Source: a virus
Virus record (IMG/VR): IMGVR_UViG_3300006641_000162
Location: 1-25,499 of that record
Length of the DNA: 25,499 nt
Strand: one strand, 5' to 3'
Shown here piece after piece: positions 730 through 19,447 of this stretch. Within the stretch, counting starts at the first letter, position 1. Every line of letters starts with the position of its first letter. A program made the translations under genes and the position numbers. The notes beneath the pieces are model-generated. The model was not told the DNA's origin, made no database searches, and saw nothing but the letters and a program-made list of their open reading frames with translations.

Positions 730-753
730 TTTATTCGTCCTAATAAGGAAATA

Positions 754-773: not shown

Positions 774-783
774 AGAACTTATA

Positions 784-2130: not shown

Positions 2131-2141
2131 TTTATGTTCCT

Positions 2142-2977: not shown

Positions 2978-2979
2978 AT

Positions 2980-3324
2980 TTATACCTTTACCTTTCTAAG
3001 AGCAGCTAGTTTCTTAAAACTATTTAACTCAGTAGTAAGCGCAGCTATTTCTTCTTGCAGCTTATTATTTTCAATATTAAGTTTAGTTAGTTGACTATTT
3101 AACTCAACTATATCTAACTGTAACTTAGTTAATTCTTCAGTAAGTTTACTATTCTGCTGACCCATACGCTCCAGCTCTTCGTGCATCATCTTGATAACAC
3201 TTGTTTCCGCATCAGTACTTCGCCAGTCTTTTAATAGTTTTTGCACTCCTACTGATAGTGCAATTATTGCCATAGCTGCCACAGAAATAGTTTGTACCAG
3301 ACTATGATTTTCTACTTCTACCAT
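2980..3324 (-). CDS. Membrane-anchored coiled-coil protein, possible lysis (spanin-like) or holin-like protein
   Basis: 114 residues from the ATG at 3322-3324, which has AAGGA 6 bases upstream. An ATG 9 codons earlier lacks such a site and was not used. Residues about 8-27 (LVQTISVAAMAIIALSVGVQ) form one hydrophobic membrane segment. From about residue 40 to 105 the protein is a heptad-patterned coiled coil rich in Leu, Glu, Asn and Lys, ending in a basic KVKV tail. One N-terminal anchor plus a long coiled coil is the layout of inner-membrane spanins (Rz-like), and also of some small phage membrane proteins of unknown role. No lipoprotein partner (o-spanin) or endolysin is seen nearby. It is the first gene after the promoter at 3447-3475 and so leads the last transcript. 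A lysis role is a guess; membrane insertion and coiled coil are directly visible. Confidence 0.75.
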   Translation of the reverse strand: MVEVENHSLVQTISVAAMAIIALSVGVQKLLKDWRSTDAETSVIKMMHEELERMGQQNSKLTEELTKLQLDIVELNSQLTKLNIENNKLQEEIAALTTELNSFKKLAALRKVKV

Positions 3325-3369
3325 TATAGTTCCTTTTTTCATAGGCAGCAATCTATATTTAGCTTATAT

Positions 3370-3414: not shown

Positions 3415-3446
3415 TAAAAATATTTAAACCTTTTTAACTCTTGTAT

Positions 3447-3475
3447 ATTATAACACAAGGGCAAGAAGTTGTCAA
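3447..3475 (-). promoter_or_regulatory. Sigma70-type promoter, perfect consensus
   Basis: On the minus strand TTGACA (3470-3475) and TATAAT (3447-3452) are separated by exactly 17 bases, a full match to the sigma70 consensus. Expected start of transcription is near 3440, giving a leader of about 115 bases before the ATG at 3324. The spacer contains CCCTTGTG one base from the -10 box, identical in sequence and position to the promoter at 19363-19391. A terminator lies directly upstream, so the membrane coiled-coil gene and the fibre genes to the left probably form a separately started transcript. Confidence 0.85.
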
Positions 3476-3479
3476 CTAG

Positions 3480-3514
3480 AAAAAATACCCTGCCCATATA
3501 ATTTGGACAGGGTA
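3480..3514 (-). terminator. Intrinsic terminator after the subtilase/94-aa gene pair
   Basis: On the minus strand a 10-bp stem (TACCCTGTCC / GGGCAGGGTA, one U-G wobble) with a 9-base loop is followed immediately by six T residues. The wobble would be a C-A mismatch if read from the other strand, which supports minus-strand use. It should end the transcript that covers the tail tip, S74 fibre, subtilase and 94-residue protein, only 5 bases before the next promoter. Confidence 0.85.
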
Positions 3515-3618
3515 CAGGATAGTACTTGTTATGTTTTTTACCGACTCGATATGTAGTTTCCAAACCGTTTTGATGAATTCGGTCGCCCAGTCGGGGTAAT
3601 TTTGTCGATCTAAAATTT
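3515..3618 (-). other. Structured or relic segment before the terminator
   Basis: About 100 bases between the stop of the 94-residue protein and the terminator, richer in G+C than its surroundings. On the minus strand CCGACT and AGTCGG, about 42 bases apart, could close a stem around an inner ACCG/CGGT pairing. It is too short for a normal tRNA and has no recognisable T-arm. Short frames here lack a start with a ribosome site. With the following leader (3325-3479) it makes up the only gene-free stretch near 300 bases in the window. Confidence 0.3.
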
Positions 3619-3903
3619 TCAGGGATTAGCTTGCTCTAAGAGTGTTCTTTCAGTATACTGCTTAAAATTTTCATCTGCGCTAACAGGTCTGGTTTGTAAC
3701 CACTCTAGTATTGCTTCAGTATTTGTATTGTATTCTATATTATTTCTTGTACAATATAATGGTTCTGTTACAAGATAAAAACCTTCGGTTTTGTACGGCT
3801 TATCGTCCTTGGTAAGTTCCAGACCCCAATGTATACTAGTTACTAAAAACTTTTCTGGATCTTCTTGAACTGGTACACACATTAATTTTATTATTTTCCA
3901 CAT
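3619..3903 (-). CDS. Small tail-module protein of unknown function
   Basis: 94-residue acidic protein, ATG at 3901-3903, with AGG 10 bases upstream and 13 bases after the subtilase stop, so it is co-transcribed with it. The visible pattern is VTSIHWGLEL ... GFYLVTEPL ... IEYNTNTEAILEWLQ ... E..LLEQANP: an early strand with IHW, a middle strand, then 'I-x-Y-N-x-x-T-E-A-x-x-x-W-L' and a C-terminal NP. Small phage proteins with this order (an early 'HW' strand and a later 'T-E-x-x-V/I-x-W' helix, as I recall for a DUF7936-type family) are common in tail and fibre regions. There is no signal peptide, membrane segment or catalytic motif. It may be a tail-associated accessory or partner of the protease; the function is unknown. 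Confidence 0.7.
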   Translation of the reverse strand: MWKIIKLMCVPVQEDPEKFLVTSIHWGLELTKDDKPYKTEGFYLVTEPLYCTRNNIEYNTNTEAILEWLQTRPVSADENFKQYTERTLLEQANP

Positions 3904-3916
3904 ACCATTTTACCTA

Positions 3917-6217
3917 TTAAGTTGATTGGGTTATATACCAATAGCTAGTTCGTTTTGTTAATAATGCAGTTCCTCTAACCGCAGTTACGGTTACAGTAAC
4001 TGTTCTAGTTCCTTGATTACTGCCCGTTGTACCAGTATATGTGGCAATACGATTGCCGCTGTTTAGGGTAAATAATCCAACATTAGCAATAGCTCCAACG
4101 GAATTATCTGGCAGCACAATATTTTCAAAAAGTATATTTAGTGTAATATTTTGAGGTGCAGCAATATTAGACCTTACAGTAATAGTATAAGGCTGTCCAG
4201 TATAAGAACTAGAAACATCTACACTTATAATATCAAAAGTAAGATCTGCTACAGTAGACTTGCTTTCGCATTTAAACATTCCATAGTTAATCTCGCCACT
4301 GCTAGGTATATTACTAGAAGTATTTGGCACATAGCTACCGCCACGATAGTACTCGGTTAAATTTATTGGATTACTACCGCCAAACTCTTGTTGAATATCA
4401 CTAGCAGTAACTATATTAGGGTTAACTACTGTTTTAAATGAACTACTAGTTGAGGGTATAGCTAATCTATTAGGACTGTCTGATAGATTACCAGAGGTAT
4501 AAAAAGTACTAGTTGAATTTACTTGATTATTAACACTTACAGTATTATTAACTATAGCTGACCTAAAATTAGTTGTTGTTACTGCGCTAGTCCCACTATT
4601 AGCTCTACGCTCCTCTGCCCATAATGCACAAATACCTGCAACATTAGGGCTTGCTGCACTTGTTCCGCTAAACGGTCCTTGATTATAATTAGTATCATCA
4701 TAGTAAGCACTACTACCACCATATTGGGAAGCGCACAATAAATTATCTCCTGGTGCCCAAACGTCTACTCTAGGTCCTTTATTAGTATACCAGCTTAAAT
4801 TATCTGTTTCACTAGTTGCTCCTACAACGATAGGCCCTACTCCACTACTAGAGTATACATCCCAAAAATTAGCATAACTTTCTTGTATACTGCCAGCGGG
4901 CATTACACCTCTGTGTGTTGGTACAGCGTATGTGATAGTACTATCACCTAATTGATAGTACCAAAAACTTGTACTGCTTTGAAAATGTTGATTATATCTA
5001 GTTAAGCTATAGGCAGGAGTTATACTATATGTATTATGGTTACCTGCACTACCTATTAATACTACTCCTGGTGTAGTAGATAGATCTACAAAATCAGCCA
5101 TTATTGCTGCAGAATAGTAAGGTACTAGTAACTGCCAATTACTAGGTCCGCCATATGCAAAAAACGAATCACTGGTATATATCCATAAATTATAAGTATT
5201 ACGTAAAGCACTAACAGTAATTCTAGCTCCATCAATAAACATTTGACCATACCCATTATCCTGAAAATATCTTGGTAGTGGCTTCCAACCGCCACCATAA
5301 CCAGTATTTACAGTACTATTTACAATAGCCTGAGATATTGGAAATGTTAAATAGGTGCTATCGGTTAAAGTAGTGCCGGTAGATACACCAGTATCAATTG
5401 AGCTTGGAAAATAATTCCAACTCATATTTATAACTGTTGGGTTTTTATTACCATAGGTAGGATTATTCGGCTTATTAGCTATCCATGCTTGTATATAATC
5501 TACTAATGCATACCACTCTATATATCCTGCGGCTGTGTATACATAGGGTCCGGCAATATTATAAATATTAGCTTGTGGTGCCCAACCATGCCTACGACCT
5601 GCAGCTATACTAGCTACACTTGTTGCATGCCAGTCATCTACTCCAGCATATTGACTATAGTTATAATTACCTCCGCCATAGCTATAGCCTAATGATGCAT
5701 TATGTTGAAACCAGTTATAGTTAGCAAGTCTAGATTGTCCTAGGTGGTTTAACCAGTCTGAATGTCCCTGCTGTATATGTCCATCCCAAATTAATACGTC
5801 TATGTCTTGTCCACGACGATCAGTGCCAGAGTTGGTAAATGCTGAACCATATCTGGTAGTGTTACCACTAGTATAACCAAGATAGGCTTGATTAGTTTGT
5901 CGGGCTATATGCCAACTTTGATGCTTTTGACTGTTTAGTGTAGAAAATATTTCTCCAACTCTGGCTGTTGCTGGACCACTTGGTATAGGTCTATTTAATT
6001 CTACGGCTAATACTCTACTATCCTGTTTTAGTGTTTCAGCTTCCTCTGTAGTAAGCATATAATGTGTATTTCTGCTATAAGGACGCCTTACAGCAAGATC
6101 TACCGTTCTATTAGGAATATATAAGCTTTCGCCAGGAGTTTCCATATCTTGGTAAAATTCGTCTAAGTCTTCCTTATTACGTAGGGTAACTATATATTCT
6201 CGTAATTGGTCGCTCAT
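3917..6217 (-). CDS. Virion-associated subtilisin-family (S8) serine protease with tail-fibre-type C-terminus
   Basis: 766 residues. Residues about 8-75 look like an I9-type propeptide (YIVTLRNKEDLDEFYQDME ... SRVLAVELN), which normally folds and inhibits the protease. The catalytic domain spans about 90-545 and shows the whole S8 set: Asp145 (IDVLIWDGH), His197 (DDWHATSVASIAAG), oxyanion Asn393 (GSAGNHN) and Ser520 (FSGTSAASPNVAG). The usual HGT at the histidine is HAT. The domain has large Tyr/Asn/Gly-rich insertions. Around residues 605-650 there is a segment (SDIQQEFGGSNPINLTEYYRGGSYVP...IPSSGEI) familiar from tail and fibre proteins, then a beta-rich domain to the end. No secretion signal is seen. 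Start ATG 6215-6217 overlaps the S74 fibre stop by 4 bases. A particle-bound protease that digests host surface or biofilm protein, or matures tail proteins, is inferred. Confidence 0.85.
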   Translation of the reverse strand: MSDQLREYIVTLRNKEDLDEFYQDMETPGESLYIPNRTVDLAVRRPYSRNTHYMLTTEEAETLKQDSRVLAVELNRPIPSGPATARVGEIFSTLNSQKHQSWHIARQTNQAYLGYTSGNTTRYGSAFTNSGTDRRGQDIDVLIWDGHIQQGHSDWLNHLGQSRLANYNWFQHNASLGYSYGGGNYNYSQYAGVDDWHATSVASIAAGRRHGWAPQANIYNIAGPYVYTAAGYIEWYALVDYIQAWIANKPNNPTYGNKNPTVINMSWNYFPSSIDTGVSTGTTLTDSTYLTFPISQAIVNSTVNTGYGGGWKPLPRYFQDNGYGQMFIDGARITVSALRNTYNLWIYTSDSFFAYGGPSNWQLLVPYYSAAIMADFVDLSTTPGVVLIGSAGNHNTYSITPAYSLTRYNQHFQSSTSFWYYQLGDSTITYAVPTHRGVMPAGSIQESYANFWDVYSSSGVGPIVVGATSETDNLSWYTNKGPRVDVWAPGDNLLCASQYGGSSAYYDDTNYNQGPFSGTSAASPNVAGICALWAEERRANSGTSAVTTTNFRSAIVNNTVSVNNQVNSTSTFYTSGNLSDSPNRLAIPSTSSSFKTVVNPNIVTASDIQQEFGGSNPINLTEYYRGGSYVPNTSSNIPSSGEINYGMFKCESKSTVADLTFDIISVDVSSSYTGQPYTITVRSNIAAPQNITLNILFENIVLPDNSVGAIANVGLFTLNSGNRIATYTGTTGSNQGTRTVTVTVTAVRGTALLTKRTSYWYITQST

Positions 6218-8388
6218 TTACTTACCTTTTTATGTAACTCAATAATTGCTTCAATTATTAGTGGTATTAGCTTAGTGTAGTTTACCGCTAGTATGCCATC
6301 ATCTCTAGTTACTACGGCTTGGGGTAGTACACCAAGTACTTGCTGTGCAATAATACCTACATCATCCCTTTTAATATAGTTTTCTGGTAGAGAACCTAAT
6401 GATTGTAAGTGTTTATCTGTCCAAGTAAAATTATAACCACCTAACGACAGTATTTTTTCAAGCGCATTTGGTATTCTAACAATGTCCTGCTTTAATGCAA
6501 TATCTGAGCCTGAATAGGCTGTTACTTCGCCGGTTACTAATAAGCTGCCTTGCAAAGTATTAGACCAGGTACCATCGCCACGTAAAAACTGACCAGTAGT
6601 ACCACCACTAGGTAAGCTGCTAGTTGAAACTGTAGCCCAAGTACCGTCTGCTCGTAAATATTTTGTATTAGTGCCGTCTGGAGGACTTATAAGATAGCTA
6701 TTCCAATTTAACCAACCTTCAATTTTTAAAGCTGTGCCACCATTATTTGTATTTCTTGCAAATATACCTGGTTTTGATGTTATTAGTGAGCGACCCTCTA
6801 TACCTGCAAAACCATCTGGATTGCTTAGAATACCTACCAGTCCCCAATATCCGCTCGTATTACTAGTAAGTCCTAGTACACCAATGTCTGCGGTTCCGGT
6901 ATTATTTGCTCTTACAGCAGTAGTAACAGCAAATGCCGTAGATGTACTACCATCAAATATTGCGCTACCCCTAGCATAGAATCCGGTAGAATATATGTTT
7001 CCATTTGTGCGATCAATATAGTAGCCAGTAGTTCCCCAAGTACTAGGATTATTAGGCGTTAAACCATTTGCTGGATTATCGCCATCCCAATTATCGCTGC
7101 GTATATCTTGAAATATACTAGCAGCAATTGGTATGCTCCATACTGTAGTATTTGCAGGTATACCTTCTACTGCGCTAGCATTAGGATTATATCTGCCAAA
7201 ACTATACCACAATACCTGCCCTACTGTTACTGAACTAGCTGTTAGGCTATAGTCAGTGGGAGCGGTTGCACCACTGGTATCACTAGGTGCTGTTGTTAGT
7301 GGTGAGTCAGTTTGATTACGTACTCTATAAGCAGTAATGCTGCGAATACCTTGTAGGCCAGTACTGCCAGGATTACCTGGATCACCTTGATCGCCTTTAT
7401 CACCTTTTGCACCTGCCTTACTCTTACTAATAGAAAAAACTTTTGACAGTGTAGGATAGTTAGTTCTGGTTGCCGTTATAGTACAAGTACCGCTATCCAC
7501 CGCATTAGTTAAAGCTGTAGCAGTAACAGTAATATTATTAACGCCTGCACTAGTACCTTGCAACGTAGTGGTTAATCCAGTACTATCAGTTTTTGTAATA
7601 GTCCAAAGATTTGTTTCGTTTGTAATACCACGAAATATTGCACCATAAGTAACAGCACCACTATAGCTAGTTACAAATCCGTCATTTGCTGCAGGAACTG
7701 TATGTGATTCGTTTGTTAATATAAAGGTTAATGCGTCGCTGCCATTATCACCACGAAATATTGTTGTAACATCTGATAAAGTGCCTAAAGTTACTGTTAC
7801 TTTTACATATCTTACTGTGGTTGGGCCTAGTGCATTAAAATTAGCTGCGGTTAATACACGAACATCACCTGTACCAGTTAGTGTAACATTACCCAAACTA
7901 ACATTACTGCTATTATAAGCTACTGCTGTAAATGTTGGTGTTCCAGTAAGATTTTGTTTAACAGCAGTAAACGTTATACTTGCAGGATTTTCTGGTGTAG
8001 TAGCTAAACTATCCTTAAATATAAAAGCCCAATCTGTTGTATCAAGCGTTAGTAAGCTAACTCCTTCTGTTGTTGTTGCAGTTAACTGTGCTGATACATC
8101 TATAACTTCTGGCTCAATACTACTTATTAATGCGTACTTTACATAATAGGTAGTATTTTTTGTTAATTTTTGAGTTGCGTCGGCTAAGGGCCCATTAATA
8201 GTAATATTTAGACCACTACCATCATATGCAAGTATACCTTGACTAGGAGGATTAAAGCCTGATGTTGTACTATACCAGACTTTAACTCCTATTAAGTCAT
8301 CTCTAACGTCGCTAGTTCTTATACTGTCATATGGCGTATCAATAATTAAGCTTAGGGATTCTAGTCCAGCATATAATCTTGCTGCCAT
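6214..8388 (-). CDS. Tail fibre with collagen-like segment and S74 intramolecular chaperone
   Basis: 724 residues, ATG 8386-8388 preceded by AGGA. Residues 1-310 are beta-rich (Ig/Fn3-like spacing, Thr/Val-rich strands). Around 320-350 seven Gly-X-Y triplets (GAKGDKGDQGDPGNP...) form a short collagen-like trimer segment. Residues about 350-620 look like a trimeric receptor-binding or shaft region. The C-terminus is a peptidase S74 domain: Ser628 and Lys633 in SDIALK match the Ser-Asp...Lys dyad of this family, followed by GYNFTW, DDVGIIAQQV and a C-terminal helix (NYTKLIPLIIEAIIELHKKV). In this family the chaperone trimer folds the fibre and then cuts itself off before the serine, releasing here about 97 residues. 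It follows the tail-tip protein by 9 bases and overlaps the subtilase start by 4, so it is made from the same transcript. Confidence 0.9.
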   Translation of the reverse strand: MAARLYAGLESLSLIIDTPYDSIRTSDVRDDLIGVKVWYSTTSGFNPPSQGILAYDGSGLNITINGPLADATQKLTKNTTYYVKYALISSIEPEVIDVSAQLTATTTEGVSLLTLDTTDWAFIFKDSLATTPENPASITFTAVKQNLTGTPTFTAVAYNSSNVSLGNVTLTGTGDVRVLTAANFNALGPTTVRYVKVTVTLGTLSDVTTIFRGDNGSDALTFILTNESHTVPAANDGFVTSYSGAVTYGAIFRGITNETNLWTITKTDSTGLTTTLQGTSAGVNNITVTATALTNAVDSGTCTITATRTNYPTLSKVFSISKSKAGAKGDKGDQGDPGNPGSTGLQGIRSITAYRVRNQTDSPLTTAPSDTSGATAPTDYSLTASSVTVGQVLWYSFGRYNPNASAVEGIPANTTVWSIPIAASIFQDIRSDNWDGDNPANGLTPNNPSTWGTTGYYIDRTNGNIYSTGFYARGSAIFDGSTSTAFAVTTAVRANNTGTADIGVLGLTSNTSGYWGLVGILSNPDGFAGIEGRSLITSKPGIFARNTNNGGTALKIEGWLNWNSYLISPPDGTNTKYLRADGTWATVSTSSLPSGGTTGQFLRGDGTWSNTLQGSLLVTGEVTAYSGSDIALKQDIVRIPNALEKILSLGGYNFTWTDKHLQSLGSLPENYIKRDDVGIIAQQVLGVLPQAVVTRDDGILAVNYTKLIPLIIEAIIELHKKVSK

Positions 8389-8397
8389 ATTATTTTC

Positions 8398-11300
8398 CTA
8401 TTTAATTGTAGTAATAGTTATAGTTCCTAAGGTACTAATTGAACTATAATTATCATTTTTATCTATTGCTCTACAAGCTATTCTATAAGCAATACCTGTA
8501 CTAGATATTCGTGGAGTTGGAAATTCTTTTAAATTAAACACGCCAACTGTAGTATTTTTTACAGTTTTTATACCGTATTTAGTTACATCTAGATTCCAAA
8601 AATCTCCACTTCCGCTATTTTTATATAGTCTAAATTCATACTCTTTAAAGCTTGGATCAGTACTATTTAAAACACCATCAATAGAAATGCTAGAAATTGT
8701 CTGTGTTTTATCTACTTGCCAGCTATTACCACTGCCACTAACTATATAAGTATTAGGTAATATACCGTTTCCAATTAGTAACATTCCTACTTTAGGTGTT
8801 CCACTAGATAGATTACCTATTGTAAGAGTTGTCCCACTTATGCTAGAACTTGTACTAGTAAACGAAATACTAGGTAAAACTACAATATAGTGATTAGATA
8901 AATCTACGGTTAATTCTGGAGATTTCAGTAAGGTTATACTCTTTCCTTCAATAGCAATAATTTTAATATCGCTCCACGGACCAACAATACTACCTATACT
9001 ATTTATATACCGAGCTCTAATTTTGTATACTTGACCAGCTATTAAACCTGTAATAGTTAAAGAACTTTGCTCTTTAAATATCTCATACCTTTGATTGGCA
9101 CCAACTACATCAAAGCTGCCATTTCCTGGTATAATCTCTAGCTGTATTTTTTCTGCTTGTACGCCTACATCTTCTGGATGTGTAAAACTAATTATAGTAA
9201 CGTTTTGATAGCTTCCAGGAGATAATTGTTCGCTTAATGGACTTGTACTAGTTGTTCCTACAATAATAGGCGATTTAGTTATACTATTTTTTACAATATA
9301 ATTGTTTGTTAAAGTTATATTACTAGAATAGGCTGGTAGGTCTACATTAGTATCTAATAGATCTAAAGAGTATATACTTGGGGAATAATCTACAAGCGTA
9401 AGTCTGGCGCTTAAATTAGAACTAGGCTCAATAGCTAAGACTATTAACTCTTGGGTTTCTTTACTAGTTTCGCCGACCATATATAGATTATCTGCCTCTA
9501 CACCATCACCTACTAATATAGATTGAGTTAGTGTAACTGTACTATAGTATCCTGTAGTTGCAACAGCTGTTAGAGTTCTTAATACGTAACCTGTGCCACT
9601 CGTTGCGGTAATGTTATTAGTTCTTATACGAATCTGATAAGTTTTTGAAGATTCTAAATAAACCTCATCTGATAATACTACGCTAGTTCCAGTATATGAT
9701 TTTATTCTTCCAGTTCCATTACCCCAAAGAGGAACATCGTGCGATACGCGTACTAAGTCGCCACGAGTACATACAAGATATTCAAAATCTACATTGAGTG
9801 TATATGTTTCAGGACGTAATTTTAGTTGTGCAAAATGAAATCTGGCTAAATATTTTGCTTGTGCTGCATTAGTAACACCAGGTAGATTTAGTTCTTCGAT
9901 TAATTCTACTGTACTCTCTGTTTTACCAAAGTTACAAACTATTAATTCATCTTGTTGATAAGATTTTTCTTCATTGATAAAACTTATTCTAAATGCATCC
10001 GGTATTCTTGGTAATGTTTTGGTACTTTCAAATCCCCAGCTATTATGTGGTGTAAAATGCTGAACTACATGACTACGAGCCTGTTCAATAACAACGCTCC
10101 ACTTTCCATCTATATACGTTGGACTAGCCATTCCAGCTGCACATATATCTCTAAGTACATCCATAACACTACGAGTATCTGATACTACTGCATTATATCT
10201 TAACTGTGGACGAGTAGCTGAACCATCACAAAATTGATGCCAAGCACTTATTGTAGTTAAATCTATTTCTGTATTAATATTTGTTACTCTATATGGCTTT
10301 GGAATAGCTGGATGTGTTAACACATATATAAATAAAGAAGCAGGATTATTTATAATACTATTAGGAACGAATTGGTTAGTACTACTATTCCAATCAAATC
10401 CAATAGTTTCTACTATTGCATTTACTCCCTCTATTTGTCCATTTATTTTATTTGAACTTTGAATTTGCATAGCGGTTTTAGCTAGCAAACATTCTGGTGG
10501 ATTAAGCATGGGTTTGTTATTACTATAACCTACGCTATTGATATACACACAGCGATGATAGTTTCTATAATCTCCCTGACCACTTGCATCTTCTTCTAAA
10601 CTACTGTTTATTCTACGAACTCTAAGTTTATAGCTAGAAGCTTGTACTACTGTATACATACCTGTTCCGGCAGCAGTAGTTAAACTAACAGTAGTAGATA
10701 GATTCTCTAGTGTACTAATAGTAATTTTCTTATTATCTAAATCTATAGACTTAATATAATAATTAGTATTTGTGGTTATTCCGCCAAAAGTTGTACCTTG
10801 AAATTTAACTCTATCTCCAACACTAAAAGCTGTGATAGATCCGCAGGTAAGCTTATTATCTACAGAATTAGTAGATGTAATTTGAATTGGGCTAGACTGT
10901 GCTTTTGCACTTAGCTGCTTAAATTCATGAACATAATTAAAAGCATCTTTTTGTCTTTCAAAAAATCCGCTTGCTCCAATTGTAATAATAGTTTGAGCAC
11001 TTGGAGAGCTATTTTGTGCAACATTGTCTGTATAACTAACTCTGCACGCTATACCAGCAGCACCACCTGTATTAGTAGCTGTTAATTGTAATGTGTGCGA
11101 ACCGCTTGATATATATCTTTCAACTGTGGCCCAGCCGGCATGCCCACCCTTAGGATAATCAATTACTAGGGCACCATCTAATAATACTTGTCCATTATCG
11201 TCACTACTAAATTCTATCTTATAAATGCCGCTTTTTGTTAAATTTAATATTTTTGTTTTATCAAAAGTTGCAGCTTGATTTGCAGCAGTTGTCCATACAC

Positions 11301-13353
11301 CGTAAATATTTATAAACTCGCCCCAAATACCTGACTCAATATTTAGAATAGTTTGAGATACTGGCTCAACATCTAAGAGCTGTCTAGTGTTAAATATTTC
11401 GGTAACGGTACCACTTACATTAGGTTGCCCACTTACTAATTGTGTTAATTGACCTGGCCCAATTCTTACAATATCTAAAATAGGGGCTGGTGGACTATAA
11501 GGATCTACATAGGCGTAATTAGTATTCTCTAAGGTAAGAGCTAATCCTTGGTATCCTTGACTATAATATGTAGTTAGGTGGTCTACTGTTTTAGCTGTTT
11601 GTATTCCATTACTACCAAAAATAACTACGCTATATAGTTTTATAAACCCATTGGGTATGGTTGGCTCATATAAAAAAGTATTGGTACTACTAATAAGTGC
11701 TTTATAGGTTGCGTCTGAATATAAGCTACTTAAGTTATTACTAGGAATACTATCTTCTACATCAGTGGCTGCTCCACTAAATCTACTTATCTGACCATTA
11801 GGTCCAATACAGTAAGTATGTTTTTGCCATAGCTGTATAGTTTCGCCATTGGAATCTACATAAAATGCGGGTGGAAGAGTATTTCTATACTCAGTTTCTA
11901 ATTTATAAGCAGGCCTATTATCAGCACTGGTTTCAGTCCATGCTTGTGTTCCAATACTATCGCCTAAATAGTATTTTTTAAGCTGAATCTCTAGTTGACA
12001 AGTAGCTTGTCTAGAGGTGCCAGAATTTTCGCCTTTAGTAATAATCTGGCGCATACCTTCTGGAAAATTAAAAGCTACGTCAATACTATTTACTGGATCA
12101 GTAAATGTTGCTTCTGTCCAAGGATTTCCTGCAGCAGCTGTATTTACTAATTCTACACTTGTACTGCCTGCTGCTACCTGTACATCTGTAGGATATAATT
12201 TTTCAAAACTTTCTACATCCTCTTTTGGCTTGCCATATAAGGTGATAGGAGTTGGAACCAATCCTGGTAAGTTATCTTGATAGTAATCCTCAATTTGGTT
12301 AGCACCAATGCAAATATCACGAACATTTAATGGGCCAAAACCCCACACAATAACTTGATTTAGTACAGTAGTAGTTGTTTTAGTTTTTATATAAGGCGTT
12401 GCACCTAATAAACCTGTATATCTAATTCTACCTAATACAACTGGTATAGGTCCGAATCTGTTAATTTGATTGCTACTGCCAGTAAATAAACCTAGCTGTA
12501 CTGGACTACCGGGATCTTTTTGTTCAGGTGGTCTAATAGGTAATACAGCATTTAATAATGCCATGCCAGCTACCTGAATAGCTGCTGCTGTTGCCACAAA
12601 AGTAATTTGTGCTAAACCTCCAGCAGCCGCAGCAGCAGCAGCTGTTGTGCCAAGTAAAGCACCTGCTGCATATGGTGCAGCAATAGCTATAGCAAATGTT
12701 AATGCTAGTCGTAAACCTTCGCGACCTTGCGGCACACTTTTATAAGTAATAGTTTGTCCAGGTTCTAATCTAGTAGTAGACCAGCGATCACGATTAATAA
12801 TTTCTCCATCTATCATAATTATTAATCTGCTAGCAATATGTTTGCCTAAATTATATTTATCAACTAAATATTTTGCAAATTCTAGGCAGGTAGTACCAGC
12901 TTGAGCTACTTCTAAAATAGTGGCTTGGCGTAATGGATGTGGTCTAGTAACTACTTGAATGGCACTTTGTTCACTATAGGAGTATATACCTTCTAATCTA
13001 CGATTCCATTTGTAATTTTGTAGTGATTCAATAACACTATCTTTACCATCTCTGCAATGCAAAAATTCTGACTGACCTATATAAATACCTACATGCGTAG
13101 GTTCGCCTAATATATTAAAAACGCAAACATCACCTGGTTTAGGTGATGTTGTTTGATTCCAGGTAATTTTTGTATGTTTTACAAAATCAGCTAGATACGG
13201 ATCATTGGCTCCTGTATAATTTTCTATATAGCTAGGTAGATCAATATTAAATTCGTTTCTATAAAAAAGGCGAACTAAGCCCCAGCAATCTACGCCGTGC
13301 TCTGTTCTGCCATTCTCTTGATATGGTAAGCCAATGTATTTTGTATAATCCAT
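8398..13353 (-). CDS. Fused tail-tip protein: NlpC/P60 peptidase + gpI-like + gpJ-like central tail fibre
   Basis: 1651 residues. Residues 1-125 are an NlpC/P60 cysteine peptidase (lambda gpK type): Cys23 in HGVDCWGL, His87 in THVGIYIG and His99 in FLHC. Residues 135-210 have a ubiquitin/ThiS-like strand pattern (IIMIDGEII ... LEPGQTITYKSVP), then Ala/Gly-rich hydrophobic stretches at 213-272, as in lambda gpI. From about 285 (NRFGPIPVVLGRIRY) it is gpJ-like, including the conserved region near 1020-1100 (W..FCDG ... SVMDVLRDICAAGMASP). An insert near 685-775 (SGIYKIEFSSDDNGQVLLDG ... GSHTLQL) resembles a PA14 carbohydrate-binding domain. An Fn3-like domain lies near 1370-1468. Start ATG 13351-13353 overlaps the upstream stop (TAATG). 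It should form the tail tip hub, cut peptidoglycan and contact the receptor. The stop is TAG. Confidence 0.88.
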   Translation of the reverse strand: MDYTKYIGLPYQENGRTEHGVDCWGLVRLFYRNEFNIDLPSYIENYTGANDPYLADFVKHTKITWNQTTSPKPGDVCVFNILGEPTHVGIYIGQSEFLHCRDGKDSVIESLQNYKWNRRLEGIYSYSEQSAIQVVTRPHPLRQATILEVAQAGTTCLEFAKYLVDKYNLGKHIASRLIIMIDGEIINRDRWSTTRLEPGQTITYKSVPQGREGLRLALTFAIAIAAPYAAGALLGTTAAAAAAAGGLAQITFVATAAAIQVAGMALLNAVLPIRPPEQKDPGSPVQLGLFTGSSNQINRFGPIPVVLGRIRYTGLLGATPYIKTKTTTTVLNQVIVWGFGPLNVRDICIGANQIEDYYQDNLPGLVPTPITLYGKPKEDVESFEKLYPTDVQVAAGSTSVELVNTAAAGNPWTEATFTDPVNSIDVAFNFPEGMRQIITKGENSGTSRQATCQLEIQLKKYYLGDSIGTQAWTETSADNRPAYKLETEYRNTLPPAFYVDSNGETIQLWQKHTYCIGPNGQISRFSGAATDVEDSIPSNNLSSLYSDATYKALISSTNTFLYEPTIPNGFIKLYSVVIFGSNGIQTAKTVDHLTTYYSQGYQGLALTLENTNYAYVDPYSPPAPILDIVRIGPGQLTQLVSGQPNVSGTVTEIFNTRQLLDVEPVSQTILNIESGIWGEFINIYGVWTTAANQAATFDKTKILNLTKSGIYKIEFSSDDNGQVLLDGALVIDYPKGGHAGWATVERYISSGSHTLQLTATNTGGAAGIACRVSYTDNVAQNSSPSAQTIITIGASGFFERQKDAFNYVHEFKQLSAKAQSSPIQITSTNSVDNKLTCGSITAFSVGDRVKFQGTTFGGITTNTNYYIKSIDLDNKKITISTLENLSTTVSLTTAAGTGMYTVVQASSYKLRVRRINSSLEEDASGQGDYRNYHRCVYINSVGYSNNKPMLNPPECLLAKTAMQIQSSNKINGQIEGVNAIVETIGFDWNSSTNQFVPNSIINNPASLFIYVLTHPAIPKPYRVTNINTEIDLTTISAWHQFCDGSATRPQLRYNAVVSDTRSVMDVLRDICAAGMASPTYIDGKWSVVIEQARSHVVQHFTPHNSWGFESTKTLPRIPDAFRISFINEEKSYQQDELIVCNFGKTESTVELIEELNLPGVTNAAQAKYLARFHFAQLKLRPETYTLNVDFEYLVCTRGDLVRVSHDVPLWGNGTGRIKSYTGTSVVLSDEVYLESSKTYQIRIRTNNITATSGTGYVLRTLTAVATTGYYSTVTLTQSILVGDGVEADNLYMVGETSKETQELIVLAIEPSSNLSARLTLVDYSPSIYSLDLLDTNVDLPAYSSNITLTNNYIVKNSITKSPIIVGTTSTSPLSEQLSPGSYQNVTIISFTHPEDVGVQAEKIQLEIIPGNGSFDVVGANQRYEIFKEQSSLTITGLIAGQVYKIRARYINSIGSIVGPWSDIKIIAIEGKSITLLKSPELTVDLSNHYIVVLPSISFTSTSSSISGTTLTIGNLSSGTPKVGMLLIGNGILPNTYIVSGSGNSWQVDKTQTISSISIDGVLNSTDPSFKEYEFRLYKNSGSGDFWNLDVTKYGIKTVKNTTVGVFNLKEFPTPRISSTGIAYRIACRAIDKNDNYSSISTLGTITITTIK

Positions 13354-13883
13354 TAGAACAGTCCTGGAAAATATCTAGGGGTAAAACTATAGGCTGGAAA
13401 TGGTTCTAGACTATAGTTTATCATATTAAGTTCTAGTTTAATACTATCACTACTATAATTTGCACTAGTTATATAGAATTTAGGAAACTCTGCCTCTATT
13501 GTATTAGGACTGCTTGCTAGTACTAATTTAATGTTTGCTAGTGCTGGTTTTGTTAAGTGGGTGCGTATAAGCGTAATTGCTTCTTGTGTTACATAATTAA
13601 TAGTTATATTACATTGTCCAACACCACTATCCTGTTCAGGCGGTAGTGTTATTTCCATAGGAATAAACGTATACTCTTGGCTATTACTAGTAACTCCATA
13701 CACTACTTCTTGATCTGTAGTGCTAGACAACCTATTAGTAAAACCATCGGCTAAATATAGATTATAAGCACCACCAGTAGTATCTGGATCTTCTATAGTC
13801 AATAACATTATTAATTGTTCGTCAGTTTCTGATGCGAACATTGCCCTAATCGCGCTGGCACTTAATCTATTTAATCTACTCAT
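13353..13883 (-). CDS. Minor tail protein, DUF1833 / lambda gpL-like
   Basis: 176 residues. The visible pattern is that of DUF1833 tail proteins: a short N-terminal helix (LSASAIRAMFASETDEQLIMLLTI), a central 'PMEITLP' strand, 'ITLIRTHL' and 'LVLASSPNTIEAEFPKF', and a C-terminal PAYSFTPRYFPGLF, the typical FP-G-L ending. Members occupy the gpL position between gpM and the NlpC/P60 protein and are believed to help build the tail tip, in the lambda case with an iron-sulphur cluster. Only one clear Cys (in GVGQCNI) is seen here, so a lambda-type cluster is unlikely. Start overlaps the gpM-like stop by 4 bases (ATGA) and its own stop overlaps the next start (TAATG), indicating tightly coupled translation of tail-tip genes. 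Confidence 0.82.
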   Translation of the reverse strand: MSRLNRLSASAIRAMFASETDEQLIMLLTIEDPDTTGGAYNLYLADGFTNRLSSTTDQEVVYGVTSNSQEYTFIPMEITLPPEQDSGVGQCNITINYVTQEAITLIRTHLTKPALANIKLVLASSPNTIEAEFPKFYITSANYSSDSIKLELNMINYSLEPFPAYSFTPRYFPGLF

Positions 13884-14263
13884 GGCATTATTTCAAAAGT
13901 TACGCTAACATTCCAGTATCCTGGAGCAAGGTATTGATAGCTAAATAATTGTCCGTCTCCTTGAGGAACAATACGAACTTCAACACTAGAACTTGTTCTA
14001 GGATGTGTAAAATTAAACCTGCCGACAGTTTTAATGCCGGCAGGATTTTGACTAGGGCTATTATTTACAAAGGTTTCTAAGGTTGTTACTTGACTAGTAG
14101 TCATTATAAATTCTAATGACATCGTATTCGGACTTTTACCACGATAACGCTGCTTTGCAGGACCTTTGTCAGTTTGGCTGCGAATAATACTAGCACCAAC
14201 TGTTTCTGTAAATCCTTTTTGTGGCGATTGTGGCAGTGCTGTTGGCCAGTTTAATACTGCCAT
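13880..14263 (-). CDS. Minor tail protein, gpM-like (distal tail)
   Basis: 127 residues. An excellent ribosome site (AAGGAG, 5 bases before ATG 14261-14263) lies over the end of the tape-measure gene. The sequence follows the gpM-type pattern: LNWPTALPQSPQKGFTETV, then a KGPAKQRYRGK segment, a strand with FIMTTSQVTTLETFV, and a C-terminal YWNVSVTFEIM strand. Lambda gpM sits below the tape measure and connects the tube to the tail tip; its place here, directly after the tape measure and before the DUF1833 protein, fits that. No membrane segment or enzyme motif is seen. It overlaps the next gene by 4 bases. Confidence 0.8.
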   Translation of the reverse strand: MAVLNWPTALPQSPQKGFTETVGASIIRSQTDKGPAKQRYRGKSPNTMSLEFIMTTSQVTTLETFVNNSPSQNPAGIKTVGRFNFTHPRTSSSVEVRIVPQGDGQLFSYQYLAPGYWNVSVTFEIMP

Positions 14264-14264
14264 A

Positions 14265-17200
14265 TTATCTCCTTGCTACCATAGGTTTAGTTCCAAAACT
14301 ATTTACAAATGATTGCTGTATGTTACTATTTGGTCTGCTTATTTCACCGGCTACTAAGTCTGCAACAATAACTTCTATACGGCGATTACCACGACTATCA
14401 GTAGTTTCACGAGTTTCAGCACGAGCTTGTGTATAATTATTTACTACAACCTCTACATTACCCTGATTAGTGCGAACACCTAGATTACCCTGACTATCGC
14501 GCTTTAGGGGCATAATGGCTTCGGGTCCTGCTTCGCCCATAACACCTAGACCTTGTGCTGCACGGAAAAATGTAGGTTGATTAACTATACTATTAGTAAA
14601 CATTCCACCATTAGCATAAGCTTGTATGCCACGATTAAATGCTCCGCCCATTGCTAGTGTATATCCAAATCCTGGAACGGCAGTATTTGATGCGCTAAAC
14701 GTATCACTACTATACCCGCCAAATCCAAATAAGTTGCTTAAAAATTTCTGTAAATATGGTCTACTTGTTGCATATGCTTCATGTGCTTGTAATCTTAGTT
14801 CATATCTAGCAATATCAGCTATAAAATTATTAATTAAGTCTTTAAAATTAAACTTACCTGTTTTGGCAAATTCAACTATAGCGTCTGCCATGCTTTCAAA
14901 CATAGATTTAAAAGCAGTGCTATATTTTTCCATTCTAGGAGTAATATCTAGTTCTCTATTTATTAATTGAATACTATTAACAGATTTTATTCTTAGAGCA
15001 TCTATTGCTTCCATAACAGTTTTAAGATCACTTAACGCTTTTATTTGTTCAGGTAATAACTGTGCTTCTTGAGTAACAATCTCTCCCCCGTCTATCATAG
15101 TTTGGCGAGGTTGGGTAAGTGGATTCTTTGCAGCTAAATCTCTTAATGTTTGCTCCAGCTTAGATTTTTCCTGTAGTAGCCTAAAACTTTCTCTATCGTA
15201 GTCTAATTGTACTTTTTGACGAGCTATATCAGCTTTTGCCAATTGAGCATTTCTATCATTGATTAAACCTAGTCTTTGCTGAATATCTAAATCTTGTTCA
15301 TTTAATGATATTATATGTTCTCTAGCTGTAGTTATAGTATTATACTGATTTGCTTCTCTGGCTAACGATGCTTCTAGTTTAGCCATATTTACAGCTTGTT
15401 CTAAAACTAATATATTTTGCTTACGCTGAGCTTCATTACCCTGTATTATTAAACCATTAATAAGTTTTTTACCTGCTATAGCTTCTTTATCTGCTTCAAC
15501 TGCCGCTAATAAACCTTGTAATTGGACATTTTGAGCTGGTGTTAAACCCTCGCTATTTGCATTTGCAAGTCTAAACGCTGCTAGTTTTGCCTCACTAAGA
15601 ACTAGATTTTTATTCAGGGATAATAGTTCTTCTTCCATACGGGTTTGCTCTATAAGTCTATCTAATCCTTGGCGACGTTGTTCTGCTAGGAGCCCTTCAC
15701 CGATTATTAGCCCTTTTTGAGCTTCAGCAATAGATATAATAATATCTAATTTGCGTTTTTCCTCTAAATATGTTTTTTGTGCTGCATTTTGTAGCTTAGT
15801 TTCTTGAGTAGTTTGATCTAGTTTCTTTTTAGCAACTGCATCTTCATATTGAGCTCTAGCTCTCGATGCTGCTAAATCTTCTGGTGGTTTTGAGCTTTTT
15901 GCTAAAACATCTAGCGCGTCTAATTTTGCTTTAGTGGCAAGATTAATTTTTGCAGTTTCTTGTTCATAGATAGTTAGTGCATAATCCATTTGAATTTGTA
16001 TTCGTTCTGGAGTATCTGCACCTATATTACTTAGAGCAGTATTTAAAGATTGAATCTCGTCATCTATAGCTTGAATTGCTTGTTGTGCTTGTAAATTAAT
16101 AGTATCAATTTCTTTACTAATTAAAGTTTGTTCTTTCTTATATTCACTGCCTTTTACTTTTAAAGATCTTGTTAGATTTCTGTTAAATGCACTAGCAAGA
16201 TTCGGAAACATTTGTAGATATTTTGCTATTTCAGCTTCAAATTCTTTTTGTGTTAAACCTAAGCTCTTTGCGTCACCAGCAACTAATTGTCTAGCTCTAT
16301 TAAATAATTCGGGATTTGTTCTGTCTAATAGTTTACTAATTTCTGTTTTTTCTGTATCCGTTAACTGTTGCGATCCTGGTTTGTTAGCTAAAAAATCTGT
16401 AGCACGAGTTTGTAATTCTGTTAATCGCCTAGCGTCACGCTCACCTTGTATTGTGTAATTAAGATCGTCTATACTTTTAGCTAAGTCATAATTTGCATTT
16501 ACTAGTTGTTCTTCTATACTAATTAACTGTAAATCTAATTTTGCCTGATATGCTATTCCTTCAACAGTTTTTACAGGATTTTTAGAGGCAATAAACTTTG
16601 CTTGCTCTACACCAAGTTTTTGAAATTCTAGTTTGAATTTTTGAATTGTAGCAGCTGCTTGCTCTGCAACACTTTTACTTATAGCAATACCAACGGCTTG
16701 AGTTAGTTCTGCAATTACTTTTTGACCACCTTTAACTGTTTTCTCTAATTCTTCTTTTAATTTTAATTTACCTTCAAGCTCTAATTGTTCGCTAAACCAT
16801 AAGAACCCTTTATCTTTAAGTTCTTCAATTCTAGTATTAACTTTTGTAAGTTCTTTACTAGCGGCATCTAGTGGTTCTTGCAATCTTTCAAATTCATCAC
16901 TAAGTCTAGCTACTTCAACAGCCGCTTCTCCAAATAATGCACCAAAATTAGCTCCTTTTAAACTATCTAATGCTGCTGCCTGCGTACGAAAATCACTAGA
17001 TTCTAAAGCTTTATTTAATTGCTGAACATATTTAAGATTATTTTCTTGAAATGTAGTAATTTTACTAGTATCTTTAAGACTATTCATAAATTCAGAAGCT
17101 GATTTTTCAGCATTTCTAGATTCTTCTTTTAAGCCTTTTAAGTACAATGTTTGTTCTTGAAATTTCTTGTTTGCTTCTTCAGTAACTTTAGTAATTTTGC

Positions 17201-19310
17201 CTTGCATTTCAGCATATTTCTCACTAGAGACAAATATACTATCTAAAGCATTAGTGACTACTTTTGCATCTAGTGGTTTTTTAGGGTCAACACCTAGAAT
17301 ACTAGATATATCTTCTCTATATTTTTTCGCTTCTGGTCTATCACCTAATGTAGTAAGTTGAGCTTGCACTGCTGTACCAACTGCTTTAGCAGCTTTTTCC
17401 TGCAAACTATCCATACCAGGAATTAAGTTTTTAATACTTTCTAACATCTTATCAAACGGATTAGCAGCAGCAGCGGCTTCATTAAAAGAATCCGTAGTAG
17501 CGCGCATAGCCTTGCTAACACTGTCAAAACTATTTGCATAAGCTAATAGTGCTTCAGTACTTAAACTCATCTTATATTTTTGATTTACATCTGTAGCAGT
17601 TTTTACAGTATCATTTAATTGATCTACTTTAGTATTAAAGGCTTCTATTTCTTTTGTATTTTTATGTATATATGGAGCTAGAAACTCATAGGCAGCTATA
17701 ACAAGTCCAATAATTTTAAGAAATGGAGATAAGAAACTTAAAGCAGTTCTAATAGTTACTCCAATGATACTTATTACTGCAGCTACTCTAGTTCCTGCTC
17801 TAGCAAAAAATCCCATACTAGTACTAGCAGAGTTTAATAATTCGCTTAATTTTTCAAGAGCAGCGATAGGTCCTTGTTCTTGAGCAACATCTGTTACTTG
17901 ACTTCTAATATCAAGACTACGTGCTCTAGTATTCTCCATTTCAGCAATTTTAGCTTTCATAAACCCCCACGTATCTTTAAGCAACGTGGGTTCATTTTTC
18001 ATTCTTTCTTCTGTGGCTTGAGCAATATCATTTTGCTTTTGTCGTTCTTTGCTAATTTCTCGTTGATTTTTTAATATCGTTGATTGCATGCGTATTACTT
18101 CATTATCACGCTTAATTATTTCAACAATAGTACCAACTTGTTTTTTCTTTGCATCGTCTATTTGCTTTTCAAGACTTAAGTTTTCATTAGCTAAATCCAT
18201 TACTCGTTTTTGGCTAGCACTCATGCCTGCTTTATCTGCTAAACGGGTATATTGTCCATGCCAAGCATCATCACTCATTCCAGAAGCAATTCTAGCACTT
18301 TCTTTAGCTGTTTCTCTGAGCCATTCATTATAATTTTGTAGAGCTGGAACAGCTTTTGTTATTAATTTACTAGCAATTACAGCAATTGCTCCACCAATTA
18401 ACACCTGATTATCTGCAAATATTTTTGCTATTGGACCTACAATACTATTTATTATTGTTAATATTTTTGTACCAGTATCTTTTAGTGTTGCTAATAGTTT
18501 GTCGTACGGATTACCTTCTTGTGCAATTTCTGCAAATTTATCTCTGCCTTCCTTTAACACAGCATTTGCAAATGCTTGGCGGCGCTCAAAGTCCGTTAGC
18601 TGACTTTCGCTTTTACCAACTGTACGTGCATAATCACTAACAGCTTTATCTAGTTTAGTAAATATACCAAGTTCGTCTAATAGTTCTGGCTCTAGTTTAG
18701 TAATACCGCGAGTTAATCTACTAACGGCATCATTCATATTTACACCTAAAGCCTGACTTGCACCTTTGGCTACAGTTGCTATTTGTAGAACTTGTTCTTG
18801 TCCTAATCCACTGGTAGTAGCTTTAGTTACTGCTTCGGCTGCTTCTCTAAAACTAATCATTCCATCTGTGGCTTTTAGAAAGCTAGTACTCATGCTTGCT
18901 AAGCTATCGCCTGTTGAGGCGCTTAGTTGTTCCATACCCTTAATCATTATTTGGGTATCCATAGCATTTCTAAGTGCTGTAAAAGCTGCGCTTACCGCAA
19001 ATAAATTAGCTGCATATTCTGCATATAATCTAACTAAACCACCCAAGCCACGAGCTTGATCAGCAAAGTCACGAGCACTACCACCAGCACGTTCGCCAGC
19101 TCCACGAGCAATATTATAGGCATTTACTTCGCCGCCAAAACCAGCTTGACGAGCGGCTCCAGCACCCGTTCTGGTGCCAGTTGTGCTGCGCATTAAATTT
19201 TGTGAGCGCTCTAGCTGCTCATTTAATTTCTTAGCATCATTTGTACGTGTTTGTAGCGTTCTGCTCTGATCTTGTACACTAAGATTGATGTCTATACGGT
19301 TACCTGCCAT
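14265..19310 (-). CDS. Tail tape measure protein
   Basis: 1681 residues, ATG 19308-19310 with GGAG 5 bases upstream, and its own promoter about 55 bases upstream. The long Lys/Glu/Gln/Leu-rich helical body (about 330-500 and 580-1420), hydrophobic stretches near 90-115, 285-315 and 505-550, and the lambda-type C-terminal region (about 1455-1510, ESMADAIVEFAKTGKFNFKD) identify a tape measure. The C-terminal segment MGEAGPEAIMPLKRDSQGNLGV is the hallmark end of lambda gpH-like proteins. It fixes tail length during tube assembly, with the chaperones encoded upstream bound to it, and may form a membrane channel at infection. At roughly 0.15 nm per helical residue the tail would be about 250 nm, an estimate only. 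No lysozyme or other enzyme domain was recognised. It is about twice the length of lambda gpH. Confidence 0.95.
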   Translation of the reverse strand: MAGNRIDINLSVQDQSRTLQTRTNDAKKLNEQLERSQNLMRSTTGTRTGAGAARQAGFGGEVNAYNIARGAGERAGGSARDFADQARGLGGLVRLYAEYAANLFAVSAAFTALRNAMDTQIMIKGMEQLSASTGDSLASMSTSFLKATDGMISFREAAEAVTKATTSGLGQEQVLQIATVAKGASQALGVNMNDAVSRLTRGITKLEPELLDELGIFTKLDKAVSDYARTVGKSESQLTDFERRQAFANAVLKEGRDKFAEIAQEGNPYDKLLATLKDTGTKILTIINSIVGPIAKIFADNQVLIGGAIAVIASKLITKAVPALQNYNEWLRETAKESARIASGMSDDAWHGQYTRLADKAGMSASQKRVMDLANENLSLEKQIDDAKKKQVGTIVEIIKRDNEVIRMQSTILKNQREISKERQKQNDIAQATEERMKNEPTLLKDTWGFMKAKIAEMENTRARSLDIRSQVTDVAQEQGPIAALEKLSELLNSASTSMGFFARAGTRVAAVISIIGVTIRTALSFLSPFLKIIGLVIAAYEFLAPYIHKNTKEIEAFNTKVDQLNDTVKTATDVNQKYKMSLSTEALLAYANSFDSVSKAMRATTDSFNEAAAAANPFDKMLESIKNLIPGMDSLQEKAAKAVGTAVQAQLTTLGDRPEAKKYREDISSILGVDPKKPLDAKVVTNALDSIFVSSEKYAEMQGKITKVTEEANKKFQEQTLYLKGLKEESRNAEKSASEFMNSLKDTSKITTFQENNLKYVQQLNKALESSDFRTQAAALDSLKGANFGALFGEAAVEVARLSDEFERLQEPLDAASKELTKVNTRIEELKDKGFLWFSEQLELEGKLKLKEELEKTVKGGQKVIAELTQAVGIAISKSVAEQAAATIQKFKLEFQKLGVEQAKFIASKNPVKTVEGIAYQAKLDLQLISIEEQLVNANYDLAKSIDDLNYTIQGERDARRLTELQTRATDFLANKPGSQQLTDTEKTEISKLLDRTNPELFNRARQLVAGDAKSLGLTQKEFEAEIAKYLQMFPNLASAFNRNLTRSLKVKGSEYKKEQTLISKEIDTINLQAQQAIQAIDDEIQSLNTALSNIGADTPERIQIQMDYALTIYEQETAKINLATKAKLDALDVLAKSSKPPEDLAASRARAQYEDAVAKKKLDQTTQETKLQNAAQKTYLEEKRKLDIIISIAEAQKGLIIGEGLLAEQRRQGLDRLIEQTRMEEELLSLNKNLVLSEAKLAAFRLANANSEGLTPAQNVQLQGLLAAVEADKEAIAGKKLINGLIIQGNEAQRKQNILVLEQAVNMAKLEASLAREANQYNTITTAREHIISLNEQDLDIQQRLGLINDRNAQLAKADIARQKVQLDYDRESFRLLQEKSKLEQTLRDLAAKNPLTQPRQTMIDGGEIVTQEAQLLPEQIKALSDLKTVMEAIDALRIKSVNSIQLINRELDITPRMEKYSTAFKSMFESMADAIVEFAKTGKFNFKDLINNFIADIARYELRLQAHEAYATSRPYLQKFLSNLFGFGGYSSDTFSASNTAVPGFGYTLAMGGAFNRGIQAYANGGMFTNSIVNQPTFFRAAQGLGVMGEAGPEAIMPLKRDSQGNLGVRTNQGNVEVVVNNYTQARAETRETTDSRGNRRIEVIVADLVAGEISRPNSNIQQSFVNSFGTKPMVARR

Positions 19311-19362
19311 ATTAGCTCCAGGTGAATTTTTCTAGCTGCATATTTTATGCGAGATTACACCA

Positions 19363-19391
19363 AGTATACCACAAGGGTTTTAAAATGTCAA
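19363..19391 (-). promoter_or_regulatory. Sigma70-type promoter before the tape measure gene
   Basis: On the minus strand TTGACA (19386-19391) and TATACT (19363-19368) are separated by 17 bases; only one base of the -10 differs from consensus. Expected start of transcription is near 19356, with a leader of about 46 bases before the tape-measure ATG. The spacer holds CCCTTGTG at exactly the position found in the promoter at 3447-3475. It lies just after a terminator and should start the tail-tip transcript. Confidence 0.85.
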
Positions 19392-19411
19392 ACACAAATA
19401 TTTTGAGGAAT

Positions 19412-19447
19412 AAAAAAGCCCGCTGTGTTAACTATTAGCGGGCTTTT
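19412..19447 (-). terminator. Intrinsic terminator overlapping the tail chaperone stop
   Basis: On the minus strand AAAAGCCCGCT and AGCGGGCTTTT form an 11-bp perfect stem with a 12-base loop, followed by a run of T residues (complement of 19412-19417). The stop codon of the -1 frame (19428-19430) lies inside the loop, so translating ribosomes reach into the hairpin. It ends the head/tube transcript and keeps tape-measure expression on its own promoter, which suits the low copy need of that protein. Confidence 0.88.

What the first reader, a model, noticed from the sequence alone, without database searches (positions are those of the whole stretch)
3447..19391. Two promoters share an identical CCCTTGTG block in a 17-base spacer: a possible phage-specific promoter signature
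Promoter 3447-3475 reads TTGACA-N8-CCCTTGTG-T-TATAAT and promoter 19363-19391 reads TTGACA-N8-CCCTTGTG-G-TATACT. The spacers are both 17 bases, and the eight identical bases sit at the same position, one base upstream of the -10 box; the other spacer bases mostly differ. Each promoter lies just downstream of an intrinsic terminator. I saw no further copy of the block in the window. An ordinary sigma70 promoter does not need this spacer sequence, so it may be bound by a phage transcription factor, contacted by the host sigma factor, or mark these as late promoters of one regulon.
Basis: partly seen in the sequence, partly recalled or inferred. Interest (0 to 1): 0.72.

Follow-up and report, generated by a model that had tools for sequence, protein, structure and literature searches.

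The report
Conserved spacer element in phage promoters
Two promoters for virion genes in this T5-like freshwater phage share an eight-base block between their two standard boxes, and evolution has kept that block almost unchanged in relatives at one of the two promoters, so it is probably a real, previously undescribed promoter element rather than a coincidence.

Summary
Both promoters are on the minus strand, exact, with 17-nt spacers and CCCTTGTG in the same register, and each follows a real terminator. They precede the tape-measure gene (site T) and a coiled-coil gene of the tail-fibre/lysis region (site A). The virus is T5-like. At site A, in relatives picked by protein and not by promoter, 64 of 77 loci carry CCCTTGTG. 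On a gene tree the 9 bases GCCCTTGTG (-22 to -14) changed 0-5 times each, while spacer positions -28 to -24 changed 14-19 times: the block is as constrained as the -35 box. At site T it is fixed only in the window's clade (24 of 68 loci); elsewhere only RTG (-16 to -14) is kept. None of 102 other promoter-like sites in nine relatives has it, and relatives carry at most two copies. So it is a late-promoter element, not a large regulon. TGTG is the known extended -10. GCCCTT lies in the window contacted by the RNA polymerase zipper; I favour direct reading by host sigma70 polymerase. A phage-coded reader (a D5 homologue exists in relatives) is the main rival. Chance is excluded. No transcription data exist; 'late' is inferred from the genes.

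The parts
3447..3475 (-). Site A promoter: -35 TTGACA 3475-3470, 17-nt spacer, -10 TATAAT 3452-3447
   Evidence: conserved upstream of the same gene in 73 of 77 protein-selected loci
3454..3462 (-). Conserved spacer element GCCCTTGTG (-22 to -14) of site A
   Evidence: 0-5 changes per position on the gene tree against 14-19 at -28 to -24
3485..3515 (-). Intrinsic terminator just upstream of site A
2980..3324 (-). First gene after site A: small transmembrane plus coiled-coil protein, weak Rz-like spanin match; start taken at the ATG at 3324
   Evidence: homologue P26059A_0033 in Curvibacter phage P26059A
19363..19391 (-). Site T promoter: -35 TTGACA 19391-19386, 17-nt spacer, -10 TATACT 19368-19363
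19370..19377 (-). CCCTTGTG block of site T, preceded by A at -22
19414..19447 (-). Intrinsic terminator just upstream of site T, overlapping the end of gene 19742-19428
14265..19310 (-). First gene after site T: tape-measure protein
   Evidence: Pfam Tape_meas_lam_C 9.6e-13

Best explanation
These are strong host-sigma70-type promoters for virion and tail-fibre/lysis genes of a T5-like freshwater phage. Besides the -35 and -10 boxes they carry a third conserved element in the spacer, (G)CCCTTGTG at -22 to -14. Its TRTG half (-17 to -14) is the known extended -10, read by sigma region 3. Its GCCCTT half (-22 to -17) lies in the spacer window contacted by the beta-prime zipper (-17/-18 and Z-element) and sigma 3. 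The most likely mechanism is direct recognition by host sigma70 RNA polymerase, possibly as modified by phage RNAP-binding proteins. This gives these promoters an identity different from the phage's early-type promoters, which have TTGAA-type -35 boxes, an ATAT-type discriminator and a different weak spacer preference. Shown: position, conservation, class specificity, absence elsewhere. Inferred: timing, and recognition by polymerase.
For: Constraint: at site A, -22..-14 has mean pairwise identity 0.929 against 0.923 for -35 and 0.392 for the neighbouring seven spacer bases, in 35 distinct promoters selected by protein; Fitch changes 0,1,4,2,0,0,5,0,0 against 19,17,17,17,14 at -28..-24. Class: RTG at -16..-14 in 34 of 35 site-A, 40 of 42 site-T and 15 of 102 other promoters; GCY at -22..-20 in 34/35, 13/42 (11 of 25 site-T promoters without the block) and 3/102 (Fisher values). 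Position agrees with published contacts: TG at -15/-14, zipper at -17/-18, Z-element -24 to -18 (passages of PMC5101437, and PMC4496709).
Against: No binding or transcription data. CCC at -21..-19 is not a known sequence-specific polymerase contact; PMC4496709 says it is unknown whether the Z-element contact is sequence-specific. If polymerase alone wanted GCCCTT, site T should keep it wherever site A does, but two of ten contigs with both sites read have CCCTTGTG at A and CCAGCGTG or CATATGTG at T, as do G012 and G013 with other bases at T. Only one of 398 Pseudomonadota genomes has a TTGACA-N12-TGTG-N-TATAAT site, and that genome was the centre chosen for having one, so hosts do not show the preference. 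P26059A and the annotated T5 late promoters lack the block.
Confidence: 0.48

Rival explanations
1. A phage-coded DNA-binding or polymerase-associated factor reads the spacer element and turns these promoters on late. D5 is the obvious candidate: T5 D5 is annotated as a DNA-binding protein needed for late transcription.
For: Promoter-specific nine-base constraint; absent from 102 other sites. Full-length D5 homologues, 41-44% identical to T5 D5, are encoded in 5 of 9 relatives read through, the same five that hold the DNA polymerase and D6 homologues; T5 annotation of D5. Site A keeps the block where site T does not, which is easier with a site-specific reader.
Against: No binding site of D5 is known to me. 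T5's annotated promoters PJ5 and PG25, called late in PMC7472727, lack the block, and CCCTTGTG occurs nowhere in T5 76000-121700. One or two copies per genome is few for a regulator's site. T5.026 was not found in the relatives by tblastn at 1e-3.
Confidence: 0.32
2. The block overlaps an operator: an early phage repressor or host protein covers the -10 region and delays these promoters.
For: Some site-A relatives have near-palindromes around the -10 such as TTGTGGTATAATATACCAAAA.
Against: The palindrome is not kept: L252, L265 and L285 have TATAATAGGTT, and other site-A promoters show G..T instead of G..C. Positions -5 to -2 change 3-8 times while the block changes 0-5 times. The block itself is not a dyad.
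Confidence: 0.1
3. Two ordinary extended -10 promoters that agree by chance or by recent copying of one to the other.
For: TG or TGTG before strong -10 boxes is common in unrelated phages seen here.
Against: Chance 2.6e-4 for the pair and conservation in protein-selected relatives. The other spacer bases and the flanks differ between A and T, and A has G but T has A at -22, so no copied stretch is seen.
Confidence: 0.04

Closest known systems
Sigma70 extended -10 promoters (TGn, TRTGn)
   Same: TG at -15/-14 and a purine at -16 before the -10 at nearly all site-A and site-T promoters
   Different: A near-perfect -35 is kept as well, and five to six further spacer bases (GCCCTT) are constrained, strongest at site A
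Z-element / -17,-18 zipper contact (Yuzenkova et al. 2011, seen only through the reviews PMC4496709 and PMC5101437, passages)
   Same: Same position, -24 to -17
   Different: No sequence consensus GCCCTT is given in the passages read; sequence specificity of that contact is stated as unknown
T4 early promoters (UP/-35/TGn/-10; PMC2988021, passages)
   Same: All core elements present together, A/T-rich upstream stretch, extra consensus beyond the core
   Different: T4's are early promoters in Escherichia coli; here the genes served are virion genes
T5 late promoters (PJ5, PG25; PMC7472727, abstract, introduction, 3.3 and discussion)
   Same: T5-like virus; sigma70-type late promoters whose early/late discrimination is unexplained
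   Different: T5's two lack CCCTTGTG; in T5 the reported difference is the discriminator, here it is also the spacer
Lambda Q-dependent late promoter, T4 MotA/AsiA middle promoters
   Same: A phage-specific element sits within the promoter (Q element in the spacer: recalled)
   Different: MotA box replaces the -35 (PMC2988021); here the -35 is TTGACA. No Q-like gene or pause element was tested

Membership tests
Sigma70-type promoter with extended -10 | TTGACA / 17 nt / TATAAT | tested here: met
   12/12 and 11/12
Sigma70-type promoter with extended -10 | TG at -15/-14 | tested here: met
   35 of 35 site A, 42 of 42 site T
Sigma70-type promoter with extended -10 | transcription start about 7 bases after the -10 | not testable with these tools
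   no RNA data
T5-like phage | T5-type capsid and tail tube, polymerase, D6, D5 | tested here: met
   window capsid about 30-31% and tail tube about 31% to Demerecviridae; polymerase 46-49%, D6 36-38%, D5 41-44% in 5 of 9 relatives read through
T5 late promoter as defined in T5 | active late in infection | not testable with these tools
   inferred from structural genes only
T5 late promoter as defined in T5 | shares sequence with PJ5/PG25 beyond the core | tested here: not met
   no CCCTTGTG in T5 76000-121700
T4 middle (MotA/AsiA) promoter | MotA box near -30 in place of -35 | tested here: not met
   -35 is TTGACA at both sites
Lambda Q late promoter | Q binding element in the spacer and sigma-dependent pause, Q gene | not tested
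   definition recalled; no Q search made
   at most two sites with 0-1 mismatches per record in 17 records; 0 of 102 other promoters

The most novel reading that the evidence does not exclude
GCCCTTGTG at -22..-14 is a new late-promoter element of a large, uncultured T5-like phage family, read by a phage-controlled transcription factor or phage-modified polymerase, and it is the switch that separates late from early sigma70 promoters, a step unexplained in T5 itself.
Probability: 0.3. Interest if true: 0.72.

Novelty: new variant of a known kind. Interest (0 to 1): 0.52.

Why it matters
How T5-like phages switch from early to late genes while using only host sigma70 polymerase is stated to be unknown (PMC7472727, abstract and introduction). 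Here a nine-base spacer element, conserved as strongly as the -35 box, separates virion-gene promoters from about a hundred other promoter-like sites of the same phages. It gives an exact target for promoter mutagenesis, in vitro transcription and pull-downs. It also bears on whether polymerase reads the spacer (Z-element) sequence-specifically, which is called unknown in PMC4496709.

Tried and rejected
Large regulon: rejected; at most two near-exact sites per record and none in 102 other promoters.

Host housekeeping promoter motif: rejected for Pseudomonadota. Among 398 genomes only the centre genome, chosen because it had a match, has TTGACA-N12-TGTG-N-TATAAT. In 84,980 genomes the full motif gave 56 stretches, mostly Clostridia, one Gammaproteobacteria MAG, and no record titled as a betaproteobacterium. 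The host stays unknown; Curvibacter phage P26059A is the closest cultured relative seen by tape-measure C terminus (41.5% over 13% of the query).

Operator palindrome around the -10: not conserved. Copying of one promoter to the other: flanks differ. T5 nick consensus (5'-NPu pGCGCN-3', as written in the T5 record) does not fit the block. Rfam: 0 matches at gathering threshold in the window. T5.026: not found in the nine relatives. Papers: CCCTTGTG gave 65 papers, the 12 listed being unrelated; one search gave none; some searches gave reviews and T5 work. I found no report of this element in those searches; that is all the claim of novelty rests on.

Many of the 102 are unproven promoters.

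Full report
Observation. Searches confirm both promoters letter for letter on the minus strand: 3475-3447 and 19391-19363, each TTGACA, 17-nt spacer with CCCTTGTG at spacer positions 9-16, one base, then TATAAT or TATACT. With three mismatches allowed there is no third match in the record (the record is 25,499 bases). They are the two best sigma70-like sites among 74 in window 1-20000, so they were not chosen for their spacers. The chance that two random 17-mers share a run of eight in register is 2.6e-4. Both terminators fold well; the scan listed only the one near 3500, because the other has a 12-nt loop.

Surroundings. All long genes lie on the minus strand: capsid, connectors, tail tube, two tail chaperones, tape measure, tail genes, S74-chaperone protein, subtilase, then the coiled-coil gene and fibre genes. 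Capsid and tail tube are about 30-31% identical to Demerecviridae, and no near DNA match exists in the phage collection. Site T starts the tape-measure unit; site A starts the unit headed by a small transmembrane coiled-coil protein (weak Rz-like spanin match, E 0.001; homologue P26059A_0033).

Site T in relatives. Selected by the tail-tube protein, the promoter upstream of the tape-measure gene could be read in 36 of 51 loci; 31 have CCCTTGTG, one CCCTTATG, four (three with one identical sequence) something else. In a broader set (80 kept of 590) 68 loci were readable: 24 have CCCTTGTG and one CCCTTATG; the others, but for one without a good promoter, keep TG and mostly a purine before it, and vary in front of that.

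Site A in relatives. Selected by the coiled-coil protein alignment (80 kept of 188), 77 loci were readable: 64 CCCTTGTG, 4 CCCTTATG, 2 CTCTTGTG, 3 other single variants, and 4 with no recognisable promoter. In the 35 distinct promoters the seven bases after the -35 are near random while GCCCTTGTG is nearly fixed. Mean pairwise identity is 0.929 for -22..-14, 0.923 for -35, 1.000 for -10, 0.392 for -29..-23, 0.678 for the 30 bases upstream and 0.597 for the 30 bases downstream. On a gene tree of 61 rows the block changed 0, 1, 4, 2, 0, 0, 5, 0 and 0 times per position, and -28..-24 changed 19, 17, 17, 17 and 14 times. The comparison lies inside one promoter, so shared ancestry cannot explain it.

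Number per genome. In 17 records of 33-88 kb, seven of the window's kin (G001-G005, G008, G010) have exactly two exact sites, at the same two places; G009 and G011 have one exact and one with a single mismatch; G012-G015 and G017 one exact; G006 and G007 only a 3-mismatch site. G016 is unrelated by its flanks. A few further sites with 3 mismatches occur in G002, G011, G016 and G017. G011-G017 had been found by the pattern, so they are biased; G001-G010 were found by protein. In ten contigs where both sites were read by protein selection, seven have CCCTTGTG at both, two have it at A but not at T, and one has CTCTTGTG at A.

Other promoters of the same phages. Nine relatives were read through. 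Of 102 other distinct intergenic promoter-like sites with 17-nt spacers, 0 have the block, 15 have RTG at -16..-14 and 3 have GCY at -22..-20; site A gives 34 and 34 of 35, site T 40 and 13 of 42, and site T without the block 23 and 11 of 25 (Fisher p between 7e-6 and 2e-27; these p values ignore relatedness). A set of 93 sites chosen by TTG and TATAATA shows an A/T stretch near -45, C at -36, a weaker -35, a weak YYnAAT preference at -22..-17 and AT after the -10. That resembles the ATATT discriminator reported for T5 early promoters (PMC7472727, discussion), so I take these as the early type; this is inference, and the choice of TATAATA built part of the match in. Site A itself often has ATA after the -10, so the discriminator does not separate it from the early type.

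Background. 82 carry a homologue of the window's genes on the fetched DNA; nine more have the same flanks by eye; 27 are unrelated. The permuted block CTCC-TGTG gave 26 stretches in all. So outside this family the block is not special. It is also not a host habit.

Mechanism. TG at -15/-14 is the extended -10; the zipper touches -17/-18 and the Z-element covers -24 to -18 (PMC5101437 and PMC4496709, passages). The conserved stretch -22..-14 lies inside that window, which favours direct reading by polymerase. The uneven fate of the block at A and T in the same genomes argues for something specific to site A, such as a phage factor. Relatives carry full-length D5 homologues (41-44%; 5 of 9 records, those that also hold polymerase and D6), and T5 D5 is annotated as needed for late transcription; but T5 76000-121700 has no CCCTTGTG. 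Sequence cannot decide between the two. Timing, start sites and binding are not shown.

Verdict. Real, conserved, confined to a T5-like family and to one or two promoters per genome; a new variant of the extended -10 sigma70 promoter. The regulon idea is not supported; the class-signature idea is.

Noticed in passing
L189:5667, 6681, 8258, 9469 (G001 25667-29469); similar sites in G006, G011, G015, G017: Promoters with 18-nt spacers (TTGACAC..CAAATTATATGCTATAATTTGGCGCC) whose -10 sits inside a long inverted repeat, several per genome, near small HTH genes and a T5 dmp homologue: probably the pre-early region.
   Followed up: partly
L188:16960-17268, L189:4850-5161, L189:6169-6495, L189:9664-9990 and relatives: Multi-copy proteins of about 105 aa that resemble single repeats of the T5 regulator D5 (PHROG 323 and 1725); full D5 appears to hold three such repeats.
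   Followed up: partly
L170:6958-7644, L183:418-1104, L179:11406-11990, L197:17545-18222, L193:11356-12051: Full-length D5 homologues in uncultured T5-like freshwater phages.
   Followed up: yes
window 3330-3446 and L267-L316 upstream of the coiled-coil gene: The transcribed leader after site A keeps CTTGACAA and, in one subgroup of relatives, what looks by eye like a hairpin AATCTAAAGGGC..GCCGTTTAGATT; the window's own leader does not fold better than shuffles.
   Followed up: partly
L188:180-577 and L193:7372-7705: Relatives encode a tmRNA with tag ANDEVFALAA, and several tRNAs.
   Followed up: no
window 3917-6217: A subtilisin-like protease gene among the tail genes; full length at 71% or more in only two IMG/VR loci and absent at this place in G001: a variable cassette.
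   Followed up: no
L047, L078, L101: Unrelated phages have promoters whose -35 lies in an inverted repeat (GGGGCTTGACAA..CAAGCCCC) directly before TTGTGNTATAAT.
   Followed up: no
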